Source of the DNA: a virus | IMG/VR virus record: IMGVR_UViG_3300033143_007503 | Location: 1 to 37,977 of that record | DNA length: 37,977 nt | Strand: one strand, 5' to 3' | In this document: one piece after another, positions 62 to 29,188 of the stretch | Numbering within the stretch: the stretch's first letter is position 1 | How the letters are laid out: each line of letters opens with the position of its first letter | The notes under the pieces: model-generated | What the model was told of the DNA's origin: nothing | What the model saw: only the letters and a program-made list of their open reading frames with translations | The model's database searches: none | Translations under genes and position numbers: made by a program

Positions 62-1084
62 ATGCCAACTTCTAAACGAAATCGTTCCGGAGAATATGAA
101 CGCCGAAAACAAAAATGTCTTCAATTTAATATTTGCTTCAAATGTTCGAAACCAAAAGGTAATAATAAATTAAAATGTGACGAGTGTTTAAAAATCAATC
201 GCCAAAAAAACCGAGAACAACGAGCACACCGTTCTCTTATTGGTCTTTGTGATTGCGGAAAACCAGCACTTCCAAATAAAAAACGATGTGATAAATGTAT
301 AAAAAAATATCGTCTTGCCCAAGCAGGTCAACGAATCAAACACAAAACCGTTGGCGGTTGTATCACTTGTGGAAAACCACCAGCTTCTGGATTGTCAACA
401 TGCAAAGAGTGCGCTATGAGAGCCACAAATGCTACTCTTCGCCGATATAATTCAAACAAAGAAAATAGTCTCTGCCCATTTTGTGGTGGAGAACTCAATG
501 ATAAGTTTCGATGCGAACCATGTCATAAGAACCATCTTCGGCATAACAGAACACGTTGGTACCAACAAAGATTAATTGTTTTAAAGCATTATGGCAATGC
601 TTGTATTTGTTGTGGTGAAACAACTTACGAATTCCTAGAAATAGATCACATTAATAATGATGGTATCAAACATCGAGATATCGTTGGTAGACATATTATA
701 GAAGATATAATAAAAAACAACTTTCCGACGGATTTACAAATTTTATGTGCTAATTGTAATCGCGGCAAGGGGAAATTTAAAATCTGTCCGCATAAACAAG
801 AACCAACACTACCAAAATCTAAGAGTGGTATAAACGCAAGGAAACGTCGCATTAAGTGTATTAATCATTATGGTGGAAAATGTATCTCTTGTGGGGAAAA
901 TAATTGGGCTTTTTTAGAATTTGATCATATCAATGATGATGGAAACAAACATCGAAAAATCATAAAAGGAAAATCAATTGTTTCTTGGCTTATCCACAAT
1001 AATTTCCCCGATATGATCCAACTGCTTTGTTGTAATTGTAATAAAACCAAAGGACTTTATACATCTACAGCAAGAGCCGAATGA
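62..1084 (+). CDS. tandem HNH endonuclease with zinc-ribbon N-terminus
   Basis: Probable DNA endonuclease, perhaps a free-standing homing enzyme. The N-terminal half carries four CxxC...CxxC zinc knuckles (about residues 25-40, 62-80, 99-117, 137-155). The C-terminal half has two similar HNH units: CxxC, then FLEIDHINNDG or FLEFDHINDDG, then CxNCN, at about residues 183-237 and 273-330. DHIN supplies the catalytic His, and the paired cysteines bind structural zinc. It lies on the plus strand and converges on the tail sheath gene, as expected for a mobile gene inserted in a structural operon. AAGGG lies upstream of the ATG. The HNH family is clear; homing activity is inferred. Confidence 0.85.
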   Translation: MPTSKRNRSGEYERRKQKCLQFNICFKCSKPKGNNKLKCDECLKINRQKNREQRAHRSLIGLCDCGKPALPNKKRCDKCIKKYRLAQAGQRIKHKTVGGCITCGKPPASGLSTCKECAMRATNATLRRYNSNKENSLCPFCGGELNDKFRCEPCHKNHLRHNRTRWYQQRLIVLKHYGNACICCGETTYEFLEIDHINNDGIKHRDIVGRHIIEDIIKNNFPTDLQILCANCNRGKGKFKICPHKQEPTLPKSKSGINARKRRIKCINHYGGKCISCGENNWAFLEFDHINDDGNKHRKIIKGKSIVSWLIHNNFPDMIQLLCCNCNKTKGLYTSTARAE

Positions 1085-4273: not shown

Positions 4274-5131
4274 TCAAATATCTTGAACAGGTTCATACGA
4301 AGTATTACTAGATTCAGAAACGTAAAGGATTTTCCCCGTCATTTCTTTAACTAAACTAATCTGGCCCAGAACAGTCTTAACGATCGTCTCCGGTAGTGGT
4401 AACCACGCTTCAGCAACCATGGTTACTTCATACCGTACTTTTGCATGTGTATCAAATCCAGCTTCCTTATCACTAGAATCAGTAGAACCACTATAACGAA
4501 TTTGAATATTTCCCTGGATTTTACCATCGAACATTTTAAATTCAGCAAGAGGATTAAATCTAGTGAGGACTTGATATAATATATACTCAATATCTCTTTT
4601 ATGCTCAGCCCAAATTGTAAAATTATAATCAACAAGCCAAGGCGTAGGACGATATACCTGAGCAGCCATATCACCACGAGTACTCAAATATCTATGATTC
4701 ATAGGATGATAAGCTGGGCTAAACTTTTCCGGGTTAAACTCAATACCCTCCCGACTAATGGCAGCAACCGGCAAACGAACACGACCTTCAACAAGATCAT
4801 CATTCCAAATCAGAACACTCTTATCACCACCAGCAATCTTAACTCTCATAAAACGATACGAATCTTTAGTAGGCACCCGTATACCAGTCCAATACTGCTT
4901 CATCGCCTGGTCCAAAGACCTAAAACCAGGAATCAAGAATTCCTCTAAATATGTCGGATATTCCTGAACACCACTAGATTGAATATGAGTACGGCCACCC
5001 TCAGCATGACTCAACTGAGCCATAGCAGGAGTAGAAGGTAATCCTAACGGCAATTCACTAGGCGGAACAGTACGCTGTTCCGGATTTACCGTAAAATCAG
5101 AGCTAAAATCGTAAAGCGGCACGTCATTCAA
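4274..5131 (-). CDS. tail sheath stabiliser / tail completion protein (T4 gp15-like)
   Basis: Probably caps the tail tube and sheath at the head-proximal end. The segment around residues 160-240 (YRPTPWLVDYNFTIWAEHKR, then a region ending FNPLAEF) matches the T4 gp15 pattern of a beta strand followed by a helix and a phrase like IVEQILPYFQPHF. The earlier RFMRVKIAG and VRLPVAAISREG stretches fit its N-terminal strands. At 285 aa it is near the T4 gp15 length (272 aa). Its ATG overlaps the stop of the preceding 98-aa gene in ATGA. Order with the sheath downstream and a gp14-like gene upstream supports the call. Similarity was judged by eye. Confidence 0.7.
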   Translation of the reverse strand: MNDVPLYDFSSDFTVNPEQRTVPPSELPLGLPSTPAMAQLSHAEGGRTHIQSSGVQEYPTYLEEFLIPGFRSLDQAMKQYWTGIRVPTKDSYRFMRVKIAGGDKSVLIWNDDLVEGRVRLPVAAISREGIEFNPEKFSPAYHPMNHRYLSTRGDMAAQVYRPTPWLVDYNFTIWAEHKRDIEYILYQVLTRFNPLAEFKMFDGKIQGNIQIRYSGSTDSSDKEAGFDTHAKVRYEVTMVAEAWLPLPETIVKTVLGQISLVKEMTGKILYVSESSNTSYEPVQDI

Positions 5132-22479: not shown

Positions 22480-22616
22480 TGGTCCTGGCAGGAATCGAAC
22501 CTGCAATGCTGTTAATTCTCCGTGACTTACAGAATACTACCGCACGGATGGGATTATCTCGGCGGCTCTTAAACAGCGGAGAGCAACTCCCGCGTATACC
22601 ACTTCGCCACAGGACC
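22480..22616 (-). tRNA. aberrant 137-nt tRNA-like element
   Basis: Minus-strand ends pair as a perfect 7-bp acceptor (GGTCCTG/CAGGACC, then A). A Leu/Ser-type D-arm (GCG, loop AAGTGGTATA, CGC) and a canonical T-arm (GCAGG, TTCGATT, CCTGC) are present. Between them lie 87 nt instead of about 33. One reading: a cramped anticodon arm GGAG-TTGCT-CTCC (GCT would be Ser) followed by a giant variable arm. That arm would be closed by GCTGTT(T)AA/TTAACAGC and contain hairpin TCCGTG/CACGGA. No normal 7-nt anticodon loop can be drawn. It could be a damaged tRNA or a tRNA-mimicking RNA. Confidence 0.55.
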
Positions 22617-25823: not shown

Positions 25824-26372
25824 TCATTCCTTTGGTAGTAAAACTACTTCACCATCAATCAATCGCTTCAAATACGCAACAGATATGATCTGCACCCCAT
25901 ATTTCTCAGCTTTCAATGTCTTATTGGATGAAGAAGTCGCATCCTTCTGAACTAAAATATCTAATTTCTTTGAAATCCCACTCTTGATGATACCACCCAA
26001 TTCCTCAGTTTCAGTTAAATGGGTACGTGTACCAGTGAAACAAAAGGATATCCCATCAAATAGCTTTTTCTTGCTTTCTTCCGCATTTTCATCAGCAGAA
26101 GGCTCCGAATCCGGATAATCAATCGTAACGCCCACGGAAGCCAGTTTCTGGATCAAGGGGATACAATCATCGATACCATTAATAACCGCAGTCCTGATTG
26201 AATCACCAAAACCGACAATGTCGATCGAATGCAGTTTTTTGAAATCAAGCCAATCACTCAACTTATCCAATTCGCCGCCAGCATTTTCTCGCAAAATCTG
26301 GACTCGACGACGCCCAAGGAGATATCTTAATAGCTCTCGATTCGCCGATCCGCCCACCACCATCAAGTTCAA
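25824..26372 (-). pseudogene. ligA: C-terminal part of NAD-dependent DNA ligase (BRCT), out of frame
   Basis: This frame carries the end of LigA: YLLGRRRVQILRENAGGELD (helix-hairpin-helix region), LSDWLDFKKLHS, IDIVGFGDSIRTAVINGI, then a BRCT domain (LFDGISFCFTGTRTHLTETE; LKAEKYGVQIISVAYLKRLI). It is in the +1 frame relative to the upstream ligase reading frame and overlaps its last 110 nt. The only in-frame starts are TTG/GTG-type or an internal ATG without a good ribosome site. It may be a frameshifted remnant, an independently started fragment, or expressed by +1 frameshifting. Confidence 0.7.
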
Positions 26373-27846
26373 TATCTTTCAATTGATCGACAGTAAGCGT
26401 GTACAAATCAGCAGCATCTTCAATCAATTTGTGATCCCATATAGCTTTAAGAATCGTATCGCCAATTTCCATAATCCCAGTGCCCTTTTTGGATGTCCCA
26501 ATCCAATGATTGATTTTACCAAGCATCGCAGCAGGACAAGCATGTGGTTGAGAACAATAGGTAACTGCACCATTCTTACCACGATAATTACGTGATGTTG
26601 GTTCACCACATACTGGACAACGTTTCGGCTCGTCAATCGACACACGATTTTTGTCTTTTGTAACAACACGAATAACTTTTGGGATAATGTCACCAGCCAA
26701 AATAACTTCAACTTCATCACCAATAGCAACATCAAGTCGCTCAATTTCATCCCAATTATTCAAAAGAGCATGTGTTACATTAACGCCACCAATCCTAACT
26801 TCTCTTAGAACACCAGTCGGGACCACAGAACCAGTGTGACCAACACTAAACAGTACACTCTCAAGTCTAGTAATACCAGACTTATGAGGAAATTTTATTG
26901 CTTTCGCATATTTGGGGAGAAGCCGTGTTCTGATGTCTTTAGTAACAAAATGGTCTTGTTGTTCTATCGAATTTAAACAAACAACAAGACCATCGATTTC
27001 ATATTTCAAGAGATCACGAGCTTGCAAAGTGGTATCATAAAAATCCTCTAAATCCTTAATACTTTTGCAAATGATGTGAGGAACCACCGAAAAGCCTAAG
27101 GTCGTAAGATCATTAAACTTTTCTTCTTCGGTGTTATTATCAACACCAGCACCAGCACTATTGAAGGCGATAAAACGCATTTTATCAGCGTCTTTACCAC
27201 TATCACGACTAAAAACGCCGTTTCCAATGTTCCGAGGATTACTTTGTTCTGATTCTGGGATTTCATTAAAAGGCATCCCGGAATCACGAGACTGGACATT
27301 TTTGAAGTCCTCGATTTGCATAATTGCTTCACCGCGAACATTAATCGTTACGGGAAATGGCAAAACCGATGGTAGATCGCGGAACAGAGCACCGTTTACT
27401 GTGATGTTTTCGCCGACTTCACCATTACCACGTGTAACAACTTCAATCAGCTTACCCTCAACATATCTCGCCCGGATGGAACCGCCATCAATTTTCAAGG
27501 ATGCCATGACCACAACCGACTCAACACCCAATTTATCGCATGTTTTATCGTACCAAGAGCTATATCCCGCGATACCATCGTCTGTGTTATCAAGAGATCC
27601 CATTGGGATTGTATGAGGGGTTTTGCTGCGAAGTTCTGATACATCATATGGGCAGCCGACACGGGTCACACGAATATCGTGTGGGTCTAACTTTTTCAAT
27701 TCTGGGCGAAGTAGATCATATTCAGCATCGGTCATGATCTGAGCACAACCGGGACGGTAATAAGCAAGATCAGCTCTATCAATCAACTTCTGAAGTTCAA
27801 AAAGCCTTTTGGTGAAATAATCTGTCGCTGCATCAAGTTTCGCCAT
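26263..27846 (-). CDS. ligA: NAD-dependent DNA ligase, N-terminal and catalytic part
   Basis: Seals nicks in DNA using NAD. The Ia domain is seen as DLAYYRPG and YDLLRPEL (residues 27-50). The adenylated Lys is in LKIDGG (K118). RGNGEVGENIT, EIDGLVV and the later AIKFPHK are further nucleotidyl-transfer motifs. An OB-fold follows, then a four-Cys zinc finger (CPVCGE...YCSQPHACP, about 425-450) and the first helix-hairpin-helix part (DIELDGGGRIGESRA). After that the frame ends in an unrelated tail (KISPWASSSPDFARK), because the remaining HhH and BRCT lie in another frame. About 20 expected residues between the two also seem missing. AAGGAC precedes ATG. Confidence 0.92.
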   Translation of the reverse strand: MAKLDAATDYFTKRLFELQKLIDRADLAYYRPGCAQIMTDAEYDLLRPELKKLDPHDIRVTRVGCPYDVSELRSKTPHTIPMGSLDNTDDGIAGYSSWYDKTCDKLGVESVVVMASLKIDGGSIRARYVEGKLIEVVTRGNGEVGENITVNGALFRDLPSVLPFPVTINVRGEAIMQIEDFKNVQSRDSGMPFNEIPESEQSNPRNIGNGVFSRDSGKDADKMRFIAFNSAGAGVDNNTEEEKFNDLTTLGFSVVPHIICKSIKDLEDFYDTTLQARDLLKYEIDGLVVCLNSIEQQDHFVTKDIRTRLLPKYAKAIKFPHKSGITRLESVLFSVGHTGSVVPTGVLREVRIGGVNVTHALLNNWDEIERLDVAIGDEVEVILAGDIIPKVIRVVTKDKNRVSIDEPKRCPVCGEPTSRNYRGKNGAVTYCSQPHACPAAMLGKINHWIGTSKKGTGIMEIGDTILKAIWDHKLIEDAADLYTLTVDQLKDIELDGGGRIGESRAIKISPWASSSPDFARKCWRRIG

Positions 27847-27985: not shown

Positions 27986-28107
27986 AAATTCTAAACGCTC
28001 CGACCCATTACCCTATGGGCCGGAGCTGGGTATTCATACTATTGAATGTATGAGCGTAGCTCCACACCTAACTAGTTCCGTTTAATTTCTCAACTCAGTC
28101 ATTAAGC
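27986..28107 (-). ncRNA. structured RNA downstream of tRNA-like halves
   Basis: No ORF covers this stretch. On the minus strand it forms strong stems: CTCCGGCCCAT with ATGGGTCGGAG (11 pairs, one G-U, loop AGGGTA), and an alternative GGAGCT/AGCTCC enclosing the hairpin CATAC/GTATG with an ATTCAATA loop. The two share GCTCC bases and may be mutually exclusive. It lies between the 5' half of tRNA-like element B and a terminator hairpin, so it is probably part of the same transcript. No known RNA family is recognised. Confidence 0.4.
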
Positions 28108-28190
28108 CAGTATGTCTTACCATTAGACGATCTCCCCTAATTACTCTAACTCAAGAGGGGGGAGACGGACTCGAACCGTCATGTACTTAG
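28108..28190 (-). tRNA. rearranged tRNA-like element B (3' half upstream of 5' half)
   Basis: Along the minus strand a T-arm comes first (GACGG, TTCGAGT, CCGTC; 28164-28180), then TCCCCCC (28157-28163), an 18-nt spacer, then GGGGAGA (28131-28137) and a canonical D-arm (TC, GTCT, AATGGTA, AGAC). TCCCCCC and GGGGAGA pair with one A-C mismatch. The two tRNA halves are therefore in inverted order, as in circularly permuted tRNA genes. An anticodon arm is not clear: TACT after the D-arm can pair with AGTA before the T-arm, only 4 bp. Confidence 0.45.
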
Positions 28191-28263
28191 CATTGGTTGA
28201 GAAAACTCGATTTAGGTGATGACCACATTTATGAGCCTAGGGTGATAGTCTGAAATTCATTTA

Positions 28264-28342
28264 TGCTTTGCCTCTGCCAATTGGGCTACCCCCGCAGAGA
28301 AAACAAGTACGGGGGGCAGGAATCGAACCTGCATATTTAGCA
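28264..28342 (-). tRNA. rearranged tRNA-like element A (candidate permuted tRNA)
   Basis: The minus strand reads T-arm GCAGG-TTCGATT-CCTGC (28316-28332), CCCCCGT then A (28308-28315), a 12-nt spacer, GCGGGGG (28289-28295), TA, and a canonical D-arm (GCC, CAATTGGCAGA, GGC). GCGGGGG and CCCCCGT pair over 7 bp, with G1-U72 exactly as in the three normal Leu tRNAs of this phage. The trailer ACTTG also resembles theirs. The 3' half precedes the 5' half. The anticodon stem is weak (AGCA with TGCT), and U33 is missing. An alternative pairing joins the 5' half to the T-arm of element B. Confidence 0.5.
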
Positions 28343-28394
28343 ATTTTGTGAATCTAAACCTAAACCTAAGACTTTAACGACACATTAGTGTCGA

Positions 28395-29126
28395 TTACCC
28401 TCCAAACAAATACTTGAAAATGGATTTCGCTACTGTTTGCTTTTTCGCTACTGTACCATTAGCACATTCACGAGCACTCTTCACAGCATCCAGCAGCTTA
28501 TCTACACGAACGATGATCTCATTTTTCTCGGCTTGCGGGATCGCACCGCTAAAAGCAACAGTTTCCCACGTACCGATGATCACATCCTCAGAATAGGTCT
28601 CGACTTGTGCAGGATGTTCTTTCGTCGCTTCATATTTGATGTGGTTCTTAAGAACCTTTTTTGTCTTTGTCGTTTCATGAGGATCCGTAGCATAAGCATT
28701 AGCTTCCTCACTCCATGTCCATGTTTCAGCCGGATCGAGAATAGGCAACTTCGCAACTTGTGTGCGGATATCCTTCAATTCCTTATCTAGGAAAAGCAGA
28801 TATGTAACAGGGATCTTTTCGATGATCACATCGCCATCAACAACCACACTAGCTGTTGCTTCGCAATTTGCAACATCTAATGTAGCCACCATATCAAACA
28901 AGCTAGTCAAAGCTTCCTGTGTGTCAGCTAAACCAGTTTTCACCGTATACTGCACACGTTTTCGTTCTGGTGGGAACACATCGCCATCATCATCCTTAGG
29001 ACGATATGTACGACTGATTCCCGTAAGCAAAGCTTCTTTCTGCAACTTTTGATAAGCCGTAGTCTGTCGCCTTTTCGATCGTTCTTTCAATCCATTTGTC
29101 AAAGCAATAACTTGATTCAGTAGCAT
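28395..29126 (-). CDS. DUF7873-like conserved protein
   Basis: A 243-aa protein matching a family of unknown function known from actinobacteria and phages. The hallmark stretches are MLLNQVIALTNGLKERS, GISRTYRPKDDDGD, LPPExxRVQ-type (here FPPERKRVQYTVK), and VVVDGDVIIEKIPVTYLLFL followed by DLxTxVxKLPxLDPAE. ATG 29126 is chosen because GGAG lies 8 nt upstream; the longer frame from 29180 begins with an unlikely hydrophobic tail. Family members have no established function. The gene is followed by the tRNA-like RNA region. Confidence 0.75.
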   Translation of the reverse strand: MLLNQVIALTNGLKERSKRRQTTAYQKLQKEALLTGISRTYRPKDDDGDVFPPERKRVQYTVKTGLADTQEALTSLFDMVATLDVANCEATASVVVDGDVIIEKIPVTYLLFLDKELKDIRTQVAKLPILDPAETWTWSEEANAYATDPHETTKTKKVLKNHIKYEATKEHPAQVETYSEDVIIGTWETVAFSGAIPQAEKNEIIVRVDKLLDAVKSARECANGTVAKKQTVAKSIFKYLFGG

Positions 29127-29188
29127 CTCTTTTTCTCCGGTTTTAACAATAATTATCAGTCTTATAATATTAAAATACACTCACAACA

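What the first reader, a model, noticed from the sequence alone, without database searches (positions are those of the whole stretch)
28108..28342. Two tRNA-like elements with 3' half upstream of 5' half (candidate permuted tRNAs)
Two T-arm/acceptor-3' segments each precede, by 12 and 18 nt, an acceptor-5'/D-arm segment. Element A pairs GCGGGGG with CCCCCGT, including the G1-U72 and ACTxG trailer found in the three ordinary Leu tRNAs. Element B pairs with one A-C mismatch. Permutation uses all four halves, whereas normal order leaves two orphans. Permuted tRNA genes are known from some algae and archaea; I know of no clear phage case. A weak anticodon arm and missing U33 are against normal decoding.
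Basis: partly seen in the sequence, partly recalled or inferred. Interest (0 to 1): 0.75.

Follow-up and report, generated by a model that had tools for sequence, protein, structure and literature searches.

The report
Two-headed permuted tRNA-like RNA
Next to a gene of unknown function, this phage carries a structured RNA with two transfer-RNA-like heads whose halves are encoded in swapped order; the same gene-plus-RNA unit recurs in many other phages and bacteria, so it looks like a real, unexplained molecular device rather than broken tRNA genes.

Summary
On the minus strand, 28332-28114, two tRNA-like heads (A, B) have T-arm plus acceptor 3' strand before acceptor 5' strand plus D-arm. They lie just 3' of a DUF7873 gene (28395-29180). 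The layout recurs downstream of DUF7873 in diverse phages and bacteria: in an unselected test 181 of 215 T-arms pair 7/7 with the next D-arm's acceptor strand (2% for shuffled partners), and all seven acceptor pairs covary. So it is not decay or chance. Ordinary decoding is unlikely: U33 is not conserved and, in place of a free anticodon arm, long flank helices lead into a conserved core. Encoded NCCA is enriched at both heads; head A favours A73, head B U/G73. A hexamer array NYUNAR precedes head A. No Rfam 15 family covers the element at gathering score; DUF7873 has no convincing fold match. Best reading: a non-decoding, two-headed permuted tRNA-mimic RNA, probably nicked at both acceptor ends by host tRNA-processing enzymes and partnered by DUF7873. 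It resembles two-piece tmRNA and YrlA Y RNA, but fails a tested feature of each. Processing, binding and function are untested.

The parts
28395..29180 (-). DUF7873 gene (PF25283), immediately upstream of the RNA; linked partner
   Evidence: Pfam E 1.1e-97; AF2 model pLDDT 94.1; no Foldseek match at E<=0.001. Of the window and 40 sheath relatives only the window, G020 and G040 have it, and the same three have clear double permuted heads.
28354..28371 (-). hexamer array NYUNAR x3 (TCTTAGGTTTAGGTTTAG) before head A
   Evidence: 62 of 83 loci have >=2 consecutive hexamers here, 2.3 expected after shuffling; 105 spacings of exactly 6 nt against 1.4
28369..28373 (-). AGTCT, proposed 5' strand of a flank helix of arm A (partner 28247-28251)
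   Evidence: window AGTCT/AGACT, G040 AACTT/AAGTT; over all loci this inner helix did not exceed shuffled partners, so weak
28338..28342 (-). 3' strand of the stem at the anticodon position, head A (TGCTA)
   Evidence: 4 of 5 pairs in the window; >=4 bp in 62 of 83 loci
28316..28332 (-). T-arm of head A
   Evidence: GCAGG TTCGATT CCTGC
28309..28315 (-). acceptor 3' strand of head A (CCCCCGT)
   Evidence: pairs 7/7 with 28289-28295; all 7 acceptor pairs covary among 64 A heads
28296..28308 (-). A73 (28308) and 12-nt spacer closing acceptor A
   Evidence: spacer free in length (4-98 nt incl. N73) and sequence; NCCA in 15 of 83 A heads
28289..28295 (-). acceptor 5' strand of head A (GCGGGGG)
28270..28288 (-). 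positions 8-9 and D-arm of head A
   Evidence: D-stem pairs covary (helix 3)
28264..28268 (-). 5' strand of the stem at the anticodon position, head A (AAGCA)
28247..28251 (-). AGACT, proposed 3' strand of a flank helix of arm A
   Evidence: weak overall
28197..28218 (-). core of seg2: helix C 5' strand CACCTAA (28218-28212), AATCGA (28212-28207), helix B 5' strand TTCTCAA (28203-28197)
   Evidence: helix B >=6 bp in 42 of 56 loci vs 8.2 expected, helix C 45 of 56 vs 23.8; AATCRA in 29 of 83 vs 2.7
28184..28188 (-). 3' strand of the stem at the anticodon position, head B (AAGTA)
   Evidence: 4 of 5 pairs in the window; >=4 bp in 66 of 83 loci
28164..28180 (-). T-arm of head B
   Evidence: GACGG TTCGAGT CCGTC
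28157..28163 (-). acceptor 3' strand of head B (TCCCCCC)
   Evidence: 6/7 in the window, 7/7 in G020 and G040
28138..28156 (-). U73 (28156) and 18-nt spacer closing acceptor B
   Evidence: spacer 7-108 nt incl. N73 in relatives; NCCA in 26 of 83 B heads
28131..28137 (-). acceptor 5' strand of head B (GGGGAGA)
28114..28130 (-). positions 8-9 and D-arm of head B
   Evidence: TC GTC...GAC
28108..28112 (-). 5' strand of the stem at the anticodon position, head B (TACTG)
28078..28093 (-). helix B 3' strand TTGAGAA (28093-28087) and conserved ATTAAACGG
   Evidence: TTAAA[CT]G in 51 of 83 loci vs 0.4 expected
28065..28071 (-). helix C 3' strand TTAGGTG
27997..28026 (-). GC-rich 12-bp hairpin at the 3' end of the element (no U-run directly after it in the window)
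   Evidence: the terminator scan found no terminator-like site on this strand

Best explanation
The element is a conserved non-coding RNA with two circularly permuted tRNA-like heads, encoded with DUF7873 as a two-part cassette. Each head forms the acceptor/T-arm/D-arm part of a tRNA; where an ordinary tRNA has a free anticodon arm, a long imperfect helix joins the head to a shared core. SHOWN by sequence comparison: the permuted topology, its covariation, its linkage to DUF7873, a length-free spacer between the acceptor strands, enrichment of encoded NCCA at that junction, different N73 preference of heads A and B, lack of conserved U33, supported helices B and C. INFERRED: the host's RNase P and tRNase Z (or CCA-adding enzyme) cut the spacers out, leaving a three-piece RNA held together by pairing with two CCA ends, as in two-piece tmRNA; DUF7873 binds it, perhaps along the hexamer array; the heads dock on tRNA-binding machinery (synthetase, EF-Tu or ribosome), possibly after aminoacylation. 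My confidence is about 0.6 for a non-decoding tRNA-mimic RNA/protein unit, about 0.5 for cut spacers, about 0.3 for docking on the translation apparatus.
For: Unselected pairing test 181/215 at 7/7 vs 2.1% for shuffled partners. 64 A heads: 99.3% of cells paired, covariation score 0.675 vs 0.171 shuffled, 0/500 shuffles. At least one permuted 7/7 head downstream of DUF7873 in 69 of 82 phage and 54 of 79 bacterial loci; elsewhere in the same loci 8 of 102 T-arm/D-arm neighbours reach 7/7. Only G020 and G040 of 40 sheath relatives carry DUF7873, and besides the window only these two have the double heads. Neighbouring genes of DUF7873 in six bacterial loci are unrelated to each other (ten proteins), so gene plus RNA look like a self-contained unit. 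NCCA 15/83 and 26/83 where about 1.3 each would be expected; N73 A-head A 70/83, B-head U 57 and G 19 of 83. U33 not conserved. Conserved core motifs and helices.
Against: No expression, processing or binding data. NCCA is absent in most loci and does not track the CCA habit of neighbouring tRNAs in the few loci where that could be counted. U at -1 is enriched at B (47/83) but hardly at A (31/83). The inner arm-A helix was no better than shuffled partners. 13 of 82 phage and 25 of 79 bacterial loci lacked a 7/7 head by the strict finder. The window's own B head has a mismatch. DUF7873 has no fold match that suggests RNA binding.
Confidence: 0.6

Rival explanations
1. True permuted tRNA genes: the flanks are removed and the two halves ligated at the anticodon (circular intermediate), giving two decoding tRNAs, as in red algae and some archaea.
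For: Same gene order, free spacer and encoded CCA in some, as described for algae and T. pendens (PMC3978253, passages). A stem at the anticodon position of >=4 of 5 bp in 62/83 A and 66/83 B heads. RtcB ligase in 4 of 18 phage records.
Against: U33 not conserved; the B-loop motif (NCUUAARAUURA-like) is fixed while acceptors vary freely; 14 of 18 phage records show no RtcB match; conserved core and flank helices would be discarded; the break falls at different places in different A heads.
Confidence: 0.13
2. A distant member of the YrlA class of bacterial Y RNAs, working with Ro60/Rsr (TROVE) proteins.
For: YrlA is itself a circularly permuted tRNA mimic (PMC11472068 and PMC8394870, passages). 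Sub-threshold RF02553 matches on B heads: 37.8, 37.1 and 32.4 bits. TROVE in 10 of 16 DUF7873-bearing bacterial genomes.
Against: Scores far below the gathering 69; TROVE in only 4 of 33 phage records; within one order TROVE is in 6 of 19 DUF7873 genomes and 16 of 81 others, no clear link; two heads, encoded CCA and DUF7873 instead of Rsr.
Confidence: 0.12
3. A 3'-UTR device of the DUF7873 mRNA: the heads are RNase P/Z sites that trim or stabilise the message or autoregulate DUF7873.
For: Same strand, directly downstream of the gene; core motifs and a 3' hairpin.
Against: Two heads with different conserved N73, NCCA and a large conserved core are more than a cleavage signal needs.
Confidence: 0.1
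4. A natural permuted group I or II intron (permuted intron-exon) that circularises tRNA exons.
For: Superficial group-I-like motifs (CAGACTA, TTAAACGG) that I recalled when first reading the sequence.
Against: No intron family at E<=10 in the window region or at gathering in the 20 loci and the 20 (one of the latter also read at E<=0.01); flanks fold as simple arms.
Confidence: 0.02
5. Decayed or rearranged ordinary tRNA genes, or chance pairing.
For: The window B head has one mismatch and neither head is called by tRNA finders.
Against: Conservation with covariation across phages and several bacterial phyla.
Confidence: 0.01

Closest known systems
Circularly permuted tRNA genes (red/green algae, crenarchaea)
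   Same: 3' half upstream of 5' half, free intervening sequence at the acceptor, encoded CCA in some
   Different: No conserved U33 or varied anticodons; heads in pairs; conserved core; companion gene; bacteria and phages
Two-piece (permuted) tmRNA, alphaproteobacteria and others
   Same: tRNA-like head with permuted acceptor strands and a long helix in place of the anticodon arm
   Different: Two heads; not matched by RF00023; ordinary tmRNA genes lie elsewhere in three of the scanned loci (L154, L189, L232); G3-U70 rare (3 and 7 of 83)
YrlA, Y RNA-like (Rfam RF02553; PDB 6CU1)
   Same: T-arm, acceptor, D-arm order on a basal stem
   Different: Two heads, encoded CCA, long spacers, DUF7873 instead of Rsr, below the Rfam score
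Large phage/bacterial structured RNAs such as GOLLD, ROOL, OLE (recalled)
   Same: Structured RNA, in phages often near tRNAs
   Different: No Rfam match at gathering; built around two permuted tRNA heads

Membership tests
Permuted tRNA gene | 3' half before 5' half with acceptor complementarity across a spacer | tested here: met
Permuted tRNA gene | Anticodon in proper position (U33, varied anticodon) | tested here: not met
   U33 in 18/62 and 16/66
Permuted tRNA gene | Halves re-ligated to a continuous tRNA | not testable with these tools
   needs RNA data
Permuted tRNA gene | BHB motif at the junction | tested here: inconclusive
   single-sequence folds show asymmetric internal loops; no BHB model was run
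tmRNA (two-piece) | Match to RF00023 | tested here: not met
   no match on the element, although tmRNA is found elsewhere in L154, L189, L232
tmRNA (two-piece) | Ala identity G3-U70 | tested here: not met
   3/83 A and 7/83 B heads
tmRNA (two-piece) | Tag-coding frame and pseudoknots | not tested
   -
YrlA Y RNA | Permuted T-arm/acceptor/D-arm mimic | tested here: met
YrlA Y RNA | Rfam RF02553 gathering score 69 | tested here: not met
   at most 37.8 bits
YrlA Y RNA | Association with Ro60/Rsr (TROVE) | tested here: not met
   4 of 33 phages; 6/19 vs 16/81 in one order
Group I/II intron | Match to an Rfam intron family | tested here: not met
Ordinary tRNA | 5' half before 3' half, called by tRNA finders | tested here: not met

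The most novel reading that the evidence does not exclude
A new class of RNA machine: two separately charged tRNA-like heads (A73 type and U/G73 type) on one scaffold, organised by DUF7873 along a six-nucleotide-periodic array, that occupies two ribosomal tRNA sites at once or presents two aminoacyl ends for a dedicated reaction, carried as a mobile two-part cassette by phages and bacteria.
Probability: 0.15. Interest if true: 0.96.

Novelty: categorically new. Interest (0 to 1): 0.87.

Why it matters
It adds an RNA with two permuted tRNA-like heads and its own protein partner that tRNA finders miss and Rfam 15 does not cover at gathering score, present in cultured phages (Gordonia, Rhodococcus, Arthrobacter, Klebsiella and other hosts) and in bacteria including Planctomycetes, Actinomycetes, Cyanobacteria and Myxococcota. 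It extends permuted tRNA architecture to phages and bacteria beyond tmRNA and YrlA, gives a function-bearing context to DUF7873, and makes testable how tRNA end-processing enzymes are used to build multi-piece RNAs.

Tried and rejected
Group I permuted intron-exon: attractive from CAGACTA and TTAAACGG, dropped because no intron model matched and the flanks form arms. Ro/TROVE link: 10 of 16 genomes looked suggestive but a same-order comparison showed none. RtcB ligase partner: 4 of 18 phage records. DUF7873 fold: Foldseek nothing at E<=0.001; VIA-align's best was 3kdq_A, Z 8.8, rmsd 8.6, not convincing; PDB sequence search gave only E 0.15; PADLOC none, NCBIfam nothing near cut-off. DUF7873 and ligase single-sequence scans found no relatives. 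Phage DNA search of the region: none. L111 was a chance match in a coding gene. The inner arm-A helix did not beat shuffling; partners of hexamers 2-4 stayed unresolved. CCA habit of neighbouring tRNAs was too sparse to test.

Selection told: the 83 loci (44 phage, 39 bacterial) were hand-picked as having both heads at >=6/7 (G040 head A and a few others placed by hand), so per-pair percentages there are biased; one search is the unselected test (161 regions, 141 usable). Exact duplicate loci were left out, near-duplicates remain (e.g. L164/L170, L179/L182, L237/L241, L249/L251, L296/L297). One search used 64 A heads: 66 of 83 had spacers of at most 16 nt, L281 and L291 were dropped. Microcoleus L242 has DUF7873 but no R1 match just downstream and was not in the 161.

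Full report
What is there. The window is an unnamed 37,977-base virus record from a divergent tailed phage (tail sheath). On the minus strand, between a DUF7873 gene (28395-29180) and an NAD-dependent DNA ligase gene (26263-27846), lie two tRNA-like heads in permuted order; exact coordinates were checked. ARAGORN and Rfam at gathering score find no tRNA there.

It is conserved. A DNA search of 40 records behind tail-sheath relatives found a homologous region in G020 (72-75% identity in two blocks) and led to a third copy in G040. Both keep two permuted heads, with compensatory acceptor changes. All three lie directly downstream of the same gene, which is PF25283, DUF7873. Of the 40 sheath relatives only G020 and G040 have DUF7873, and besides the window only these two have clear double heads by model R1.

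It is widespread. Scans with a DUF7873 alignment gave 80 viral loci and 80 bacterial loci from Planctomycetes, Actinomycetes, Cyanobacteria, Myxococcota and others. R1 matches sit just downstream of the gene in most. Among cultured and other deposited phages DUF7873 occurs in 73 of 50,697 records. I read 12 regions: the bases just after the gene are mostly unannotated (one search shows a 'tRNA-OTHER, Sup-TTA' there in one Klebsiella phage), and both heads score in Gordonia phages Phendrix and Ziko, Rhodococcus NiceHouse, Arthrobacter Mimi and two Klebsiella jumbo phages, one head in others, none just downstream in Microcoleus.

The permutation is real. An unselected test took every T-arm and D-arm in 161 regions, 141 of them usable: 181 of 215 T-arms pair 7/7 with the first downstream D-arm's acceptor strand, 10 pair 6/7; shuffled partners reach 7/7 in 2.1%; the nearest upstream D-arm (normal order, ordinary tRNAs included) in 19 of 101. 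At least one permuted 7/7 head occurs in 69 of 82 phage and 54 of 79 bacterial regions; elsewhere in the same loci 8 of 102 reach 7/7. On 64 aligned A heads 99.3% of cells pair, the covariation score is 0.675 against 0.171 in shuffles (0/500) and at most 0.157 for slid partners, and all seven acceptor pairs change on both sides.

What kind of tRNA part. In 83 loci with both heads (selected, see Tried and rejected), N73 is A in 70 A heads, and U in 57 or G in 19 B heads; encoded NCCA follows the acceptor in 15 A and 26 B heads, about 1.3 each being expected by chance; spacers run from 4 to 98 nt (A) and 7 to 108 nt (B) including N73. A stem of at least 4 of 5 pairs exists at the anticodon position in 62 and 66 of 83, but U33 is present in only 18 of 62 and 16 of 66, and B heads share a fixed UUAAR-type motif there. 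In A heads with class II type D-arms the break lies in the variable arm (read by eye). This speaks for tRNA mimicry, not decoding.

Flanks and core. Folding the flanks with an artificial hairpin in place of each head gives long arms. Helix B (before TTAAA) is at least 6 bp in 42 of 56 loci against 8.2 expected, helix C in 45 of 56 against 23.8, the outer arm-A helix in 38 of 54 against 24.1; the inner arm-A helix is not distinguishable from shuffled partners. TTAAA[CT]G occurs in 51 of 83 against 0.4, AATCRA in 29 of 83 against 2.7. Before head A, 62 of 83 loci hold at least two consecutive NYUNAR hexamers against 2.3 expected; 105 spacings are exactly six against 1.4. The unit YUNAR is its own reverse complement; only the first hexamer has a clear partner. 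I cannot explain this array.

The protein. DUF7873 is predicted with confidence (mean pLDDT 94.1, pTM 0.71). Foldseek has nothing at E<=0.001; a second look gives 3kdq_A, Z 8.8 at rmsd 8.6, which I do not trust. No held paper contains 'DUF7873'. Neighbouring genes in six bacterial loci (ten proteins) are unrelated to each other, and in one cyanobacterial order 19 of 100 genomes carry DUF7873, two of them as broken or short matches, so the cassette looks self-contained and sporadic.

Comparison with the known. Permuted tRNA genes are re-ligated with the anticodon in place, while permuted tmRNAs stay in two pieces (PMC3978253, passages). YrlA is a circularly permuted tRNA mimic (PMC11472068, PMC8394870, passages). 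Rfam finds no family on the element at gathering score in the window or in the 20 loci and the 20 (for the window); YrlA scores 22 to 38 bits against 69. TROVE is not linked. Paper searches on permuted tRNA with phage, bacteria, Y RNA and related terms listed nothing that, by title and start of abstract, describes this element; preprints and most subscription papers were not searchable.

Judgement. The topology, conservation, covariation and gene linkage are shown. Removal of the spacers, binding by DUF7873 and docking on the translation machinery are inference. I call it categorically new because it shares the permuted layout with three known kinds but fails a tested defining feature of each, and it has two heads, its own gene and an unexplained hexamer array.

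Noticed in passing
window 22480-22616 (-): Rfam tRNA match of 38.3 bits over 137 bases in normal order, with a long extra structured stretch inside a GCTGTT/AACAGC helix; ARAGORN does not call it. The same sequence is in near-identical record G002 (L086, L127).
   Followed up: partly
G021, L108 1466-1520 (-): A permuted-looking 7/7 T-arm/D-arm junction (GCGGGGG/CCCCCGC) without DUF7873 in the record, among partial tRNA pieces; could be decay or another element.
   Followed up: partly
G038, L117 (G038:C1:232928-232981, -): Another permuted-looking 7/7 junction (GGCGAAA/TTTCGCC) without DUF7873 in the record.
   Followed up: no
L106 about 4345-4395: An orphan Leu-type 5' tRNA half (acceptor 5' strand and D-arm) directly before an ordinary tRNA-Leu(gag).
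   Followed up: no
L106 1447-1612 and L107 1962-2035: Phage tRNAs called as Leu but only 74-77 nt long, with the D-arm type seen in head A.
   Followed up: no
L154 1482-1882, L189 2398-2773, L232 566-1094: Ordinary tmRNA genes in the same phage loci as the element.
   Followed up: no
genomes G177 and G119: DUF7873 copy with in-frame stops (G177) and a short partial match (G119), suggesting gain and loss of the cassette.
   Followed up: no
window 62-1084 (+): HNH-endonuclease-like gene next to the tail sheath gene.
   Followed up: no
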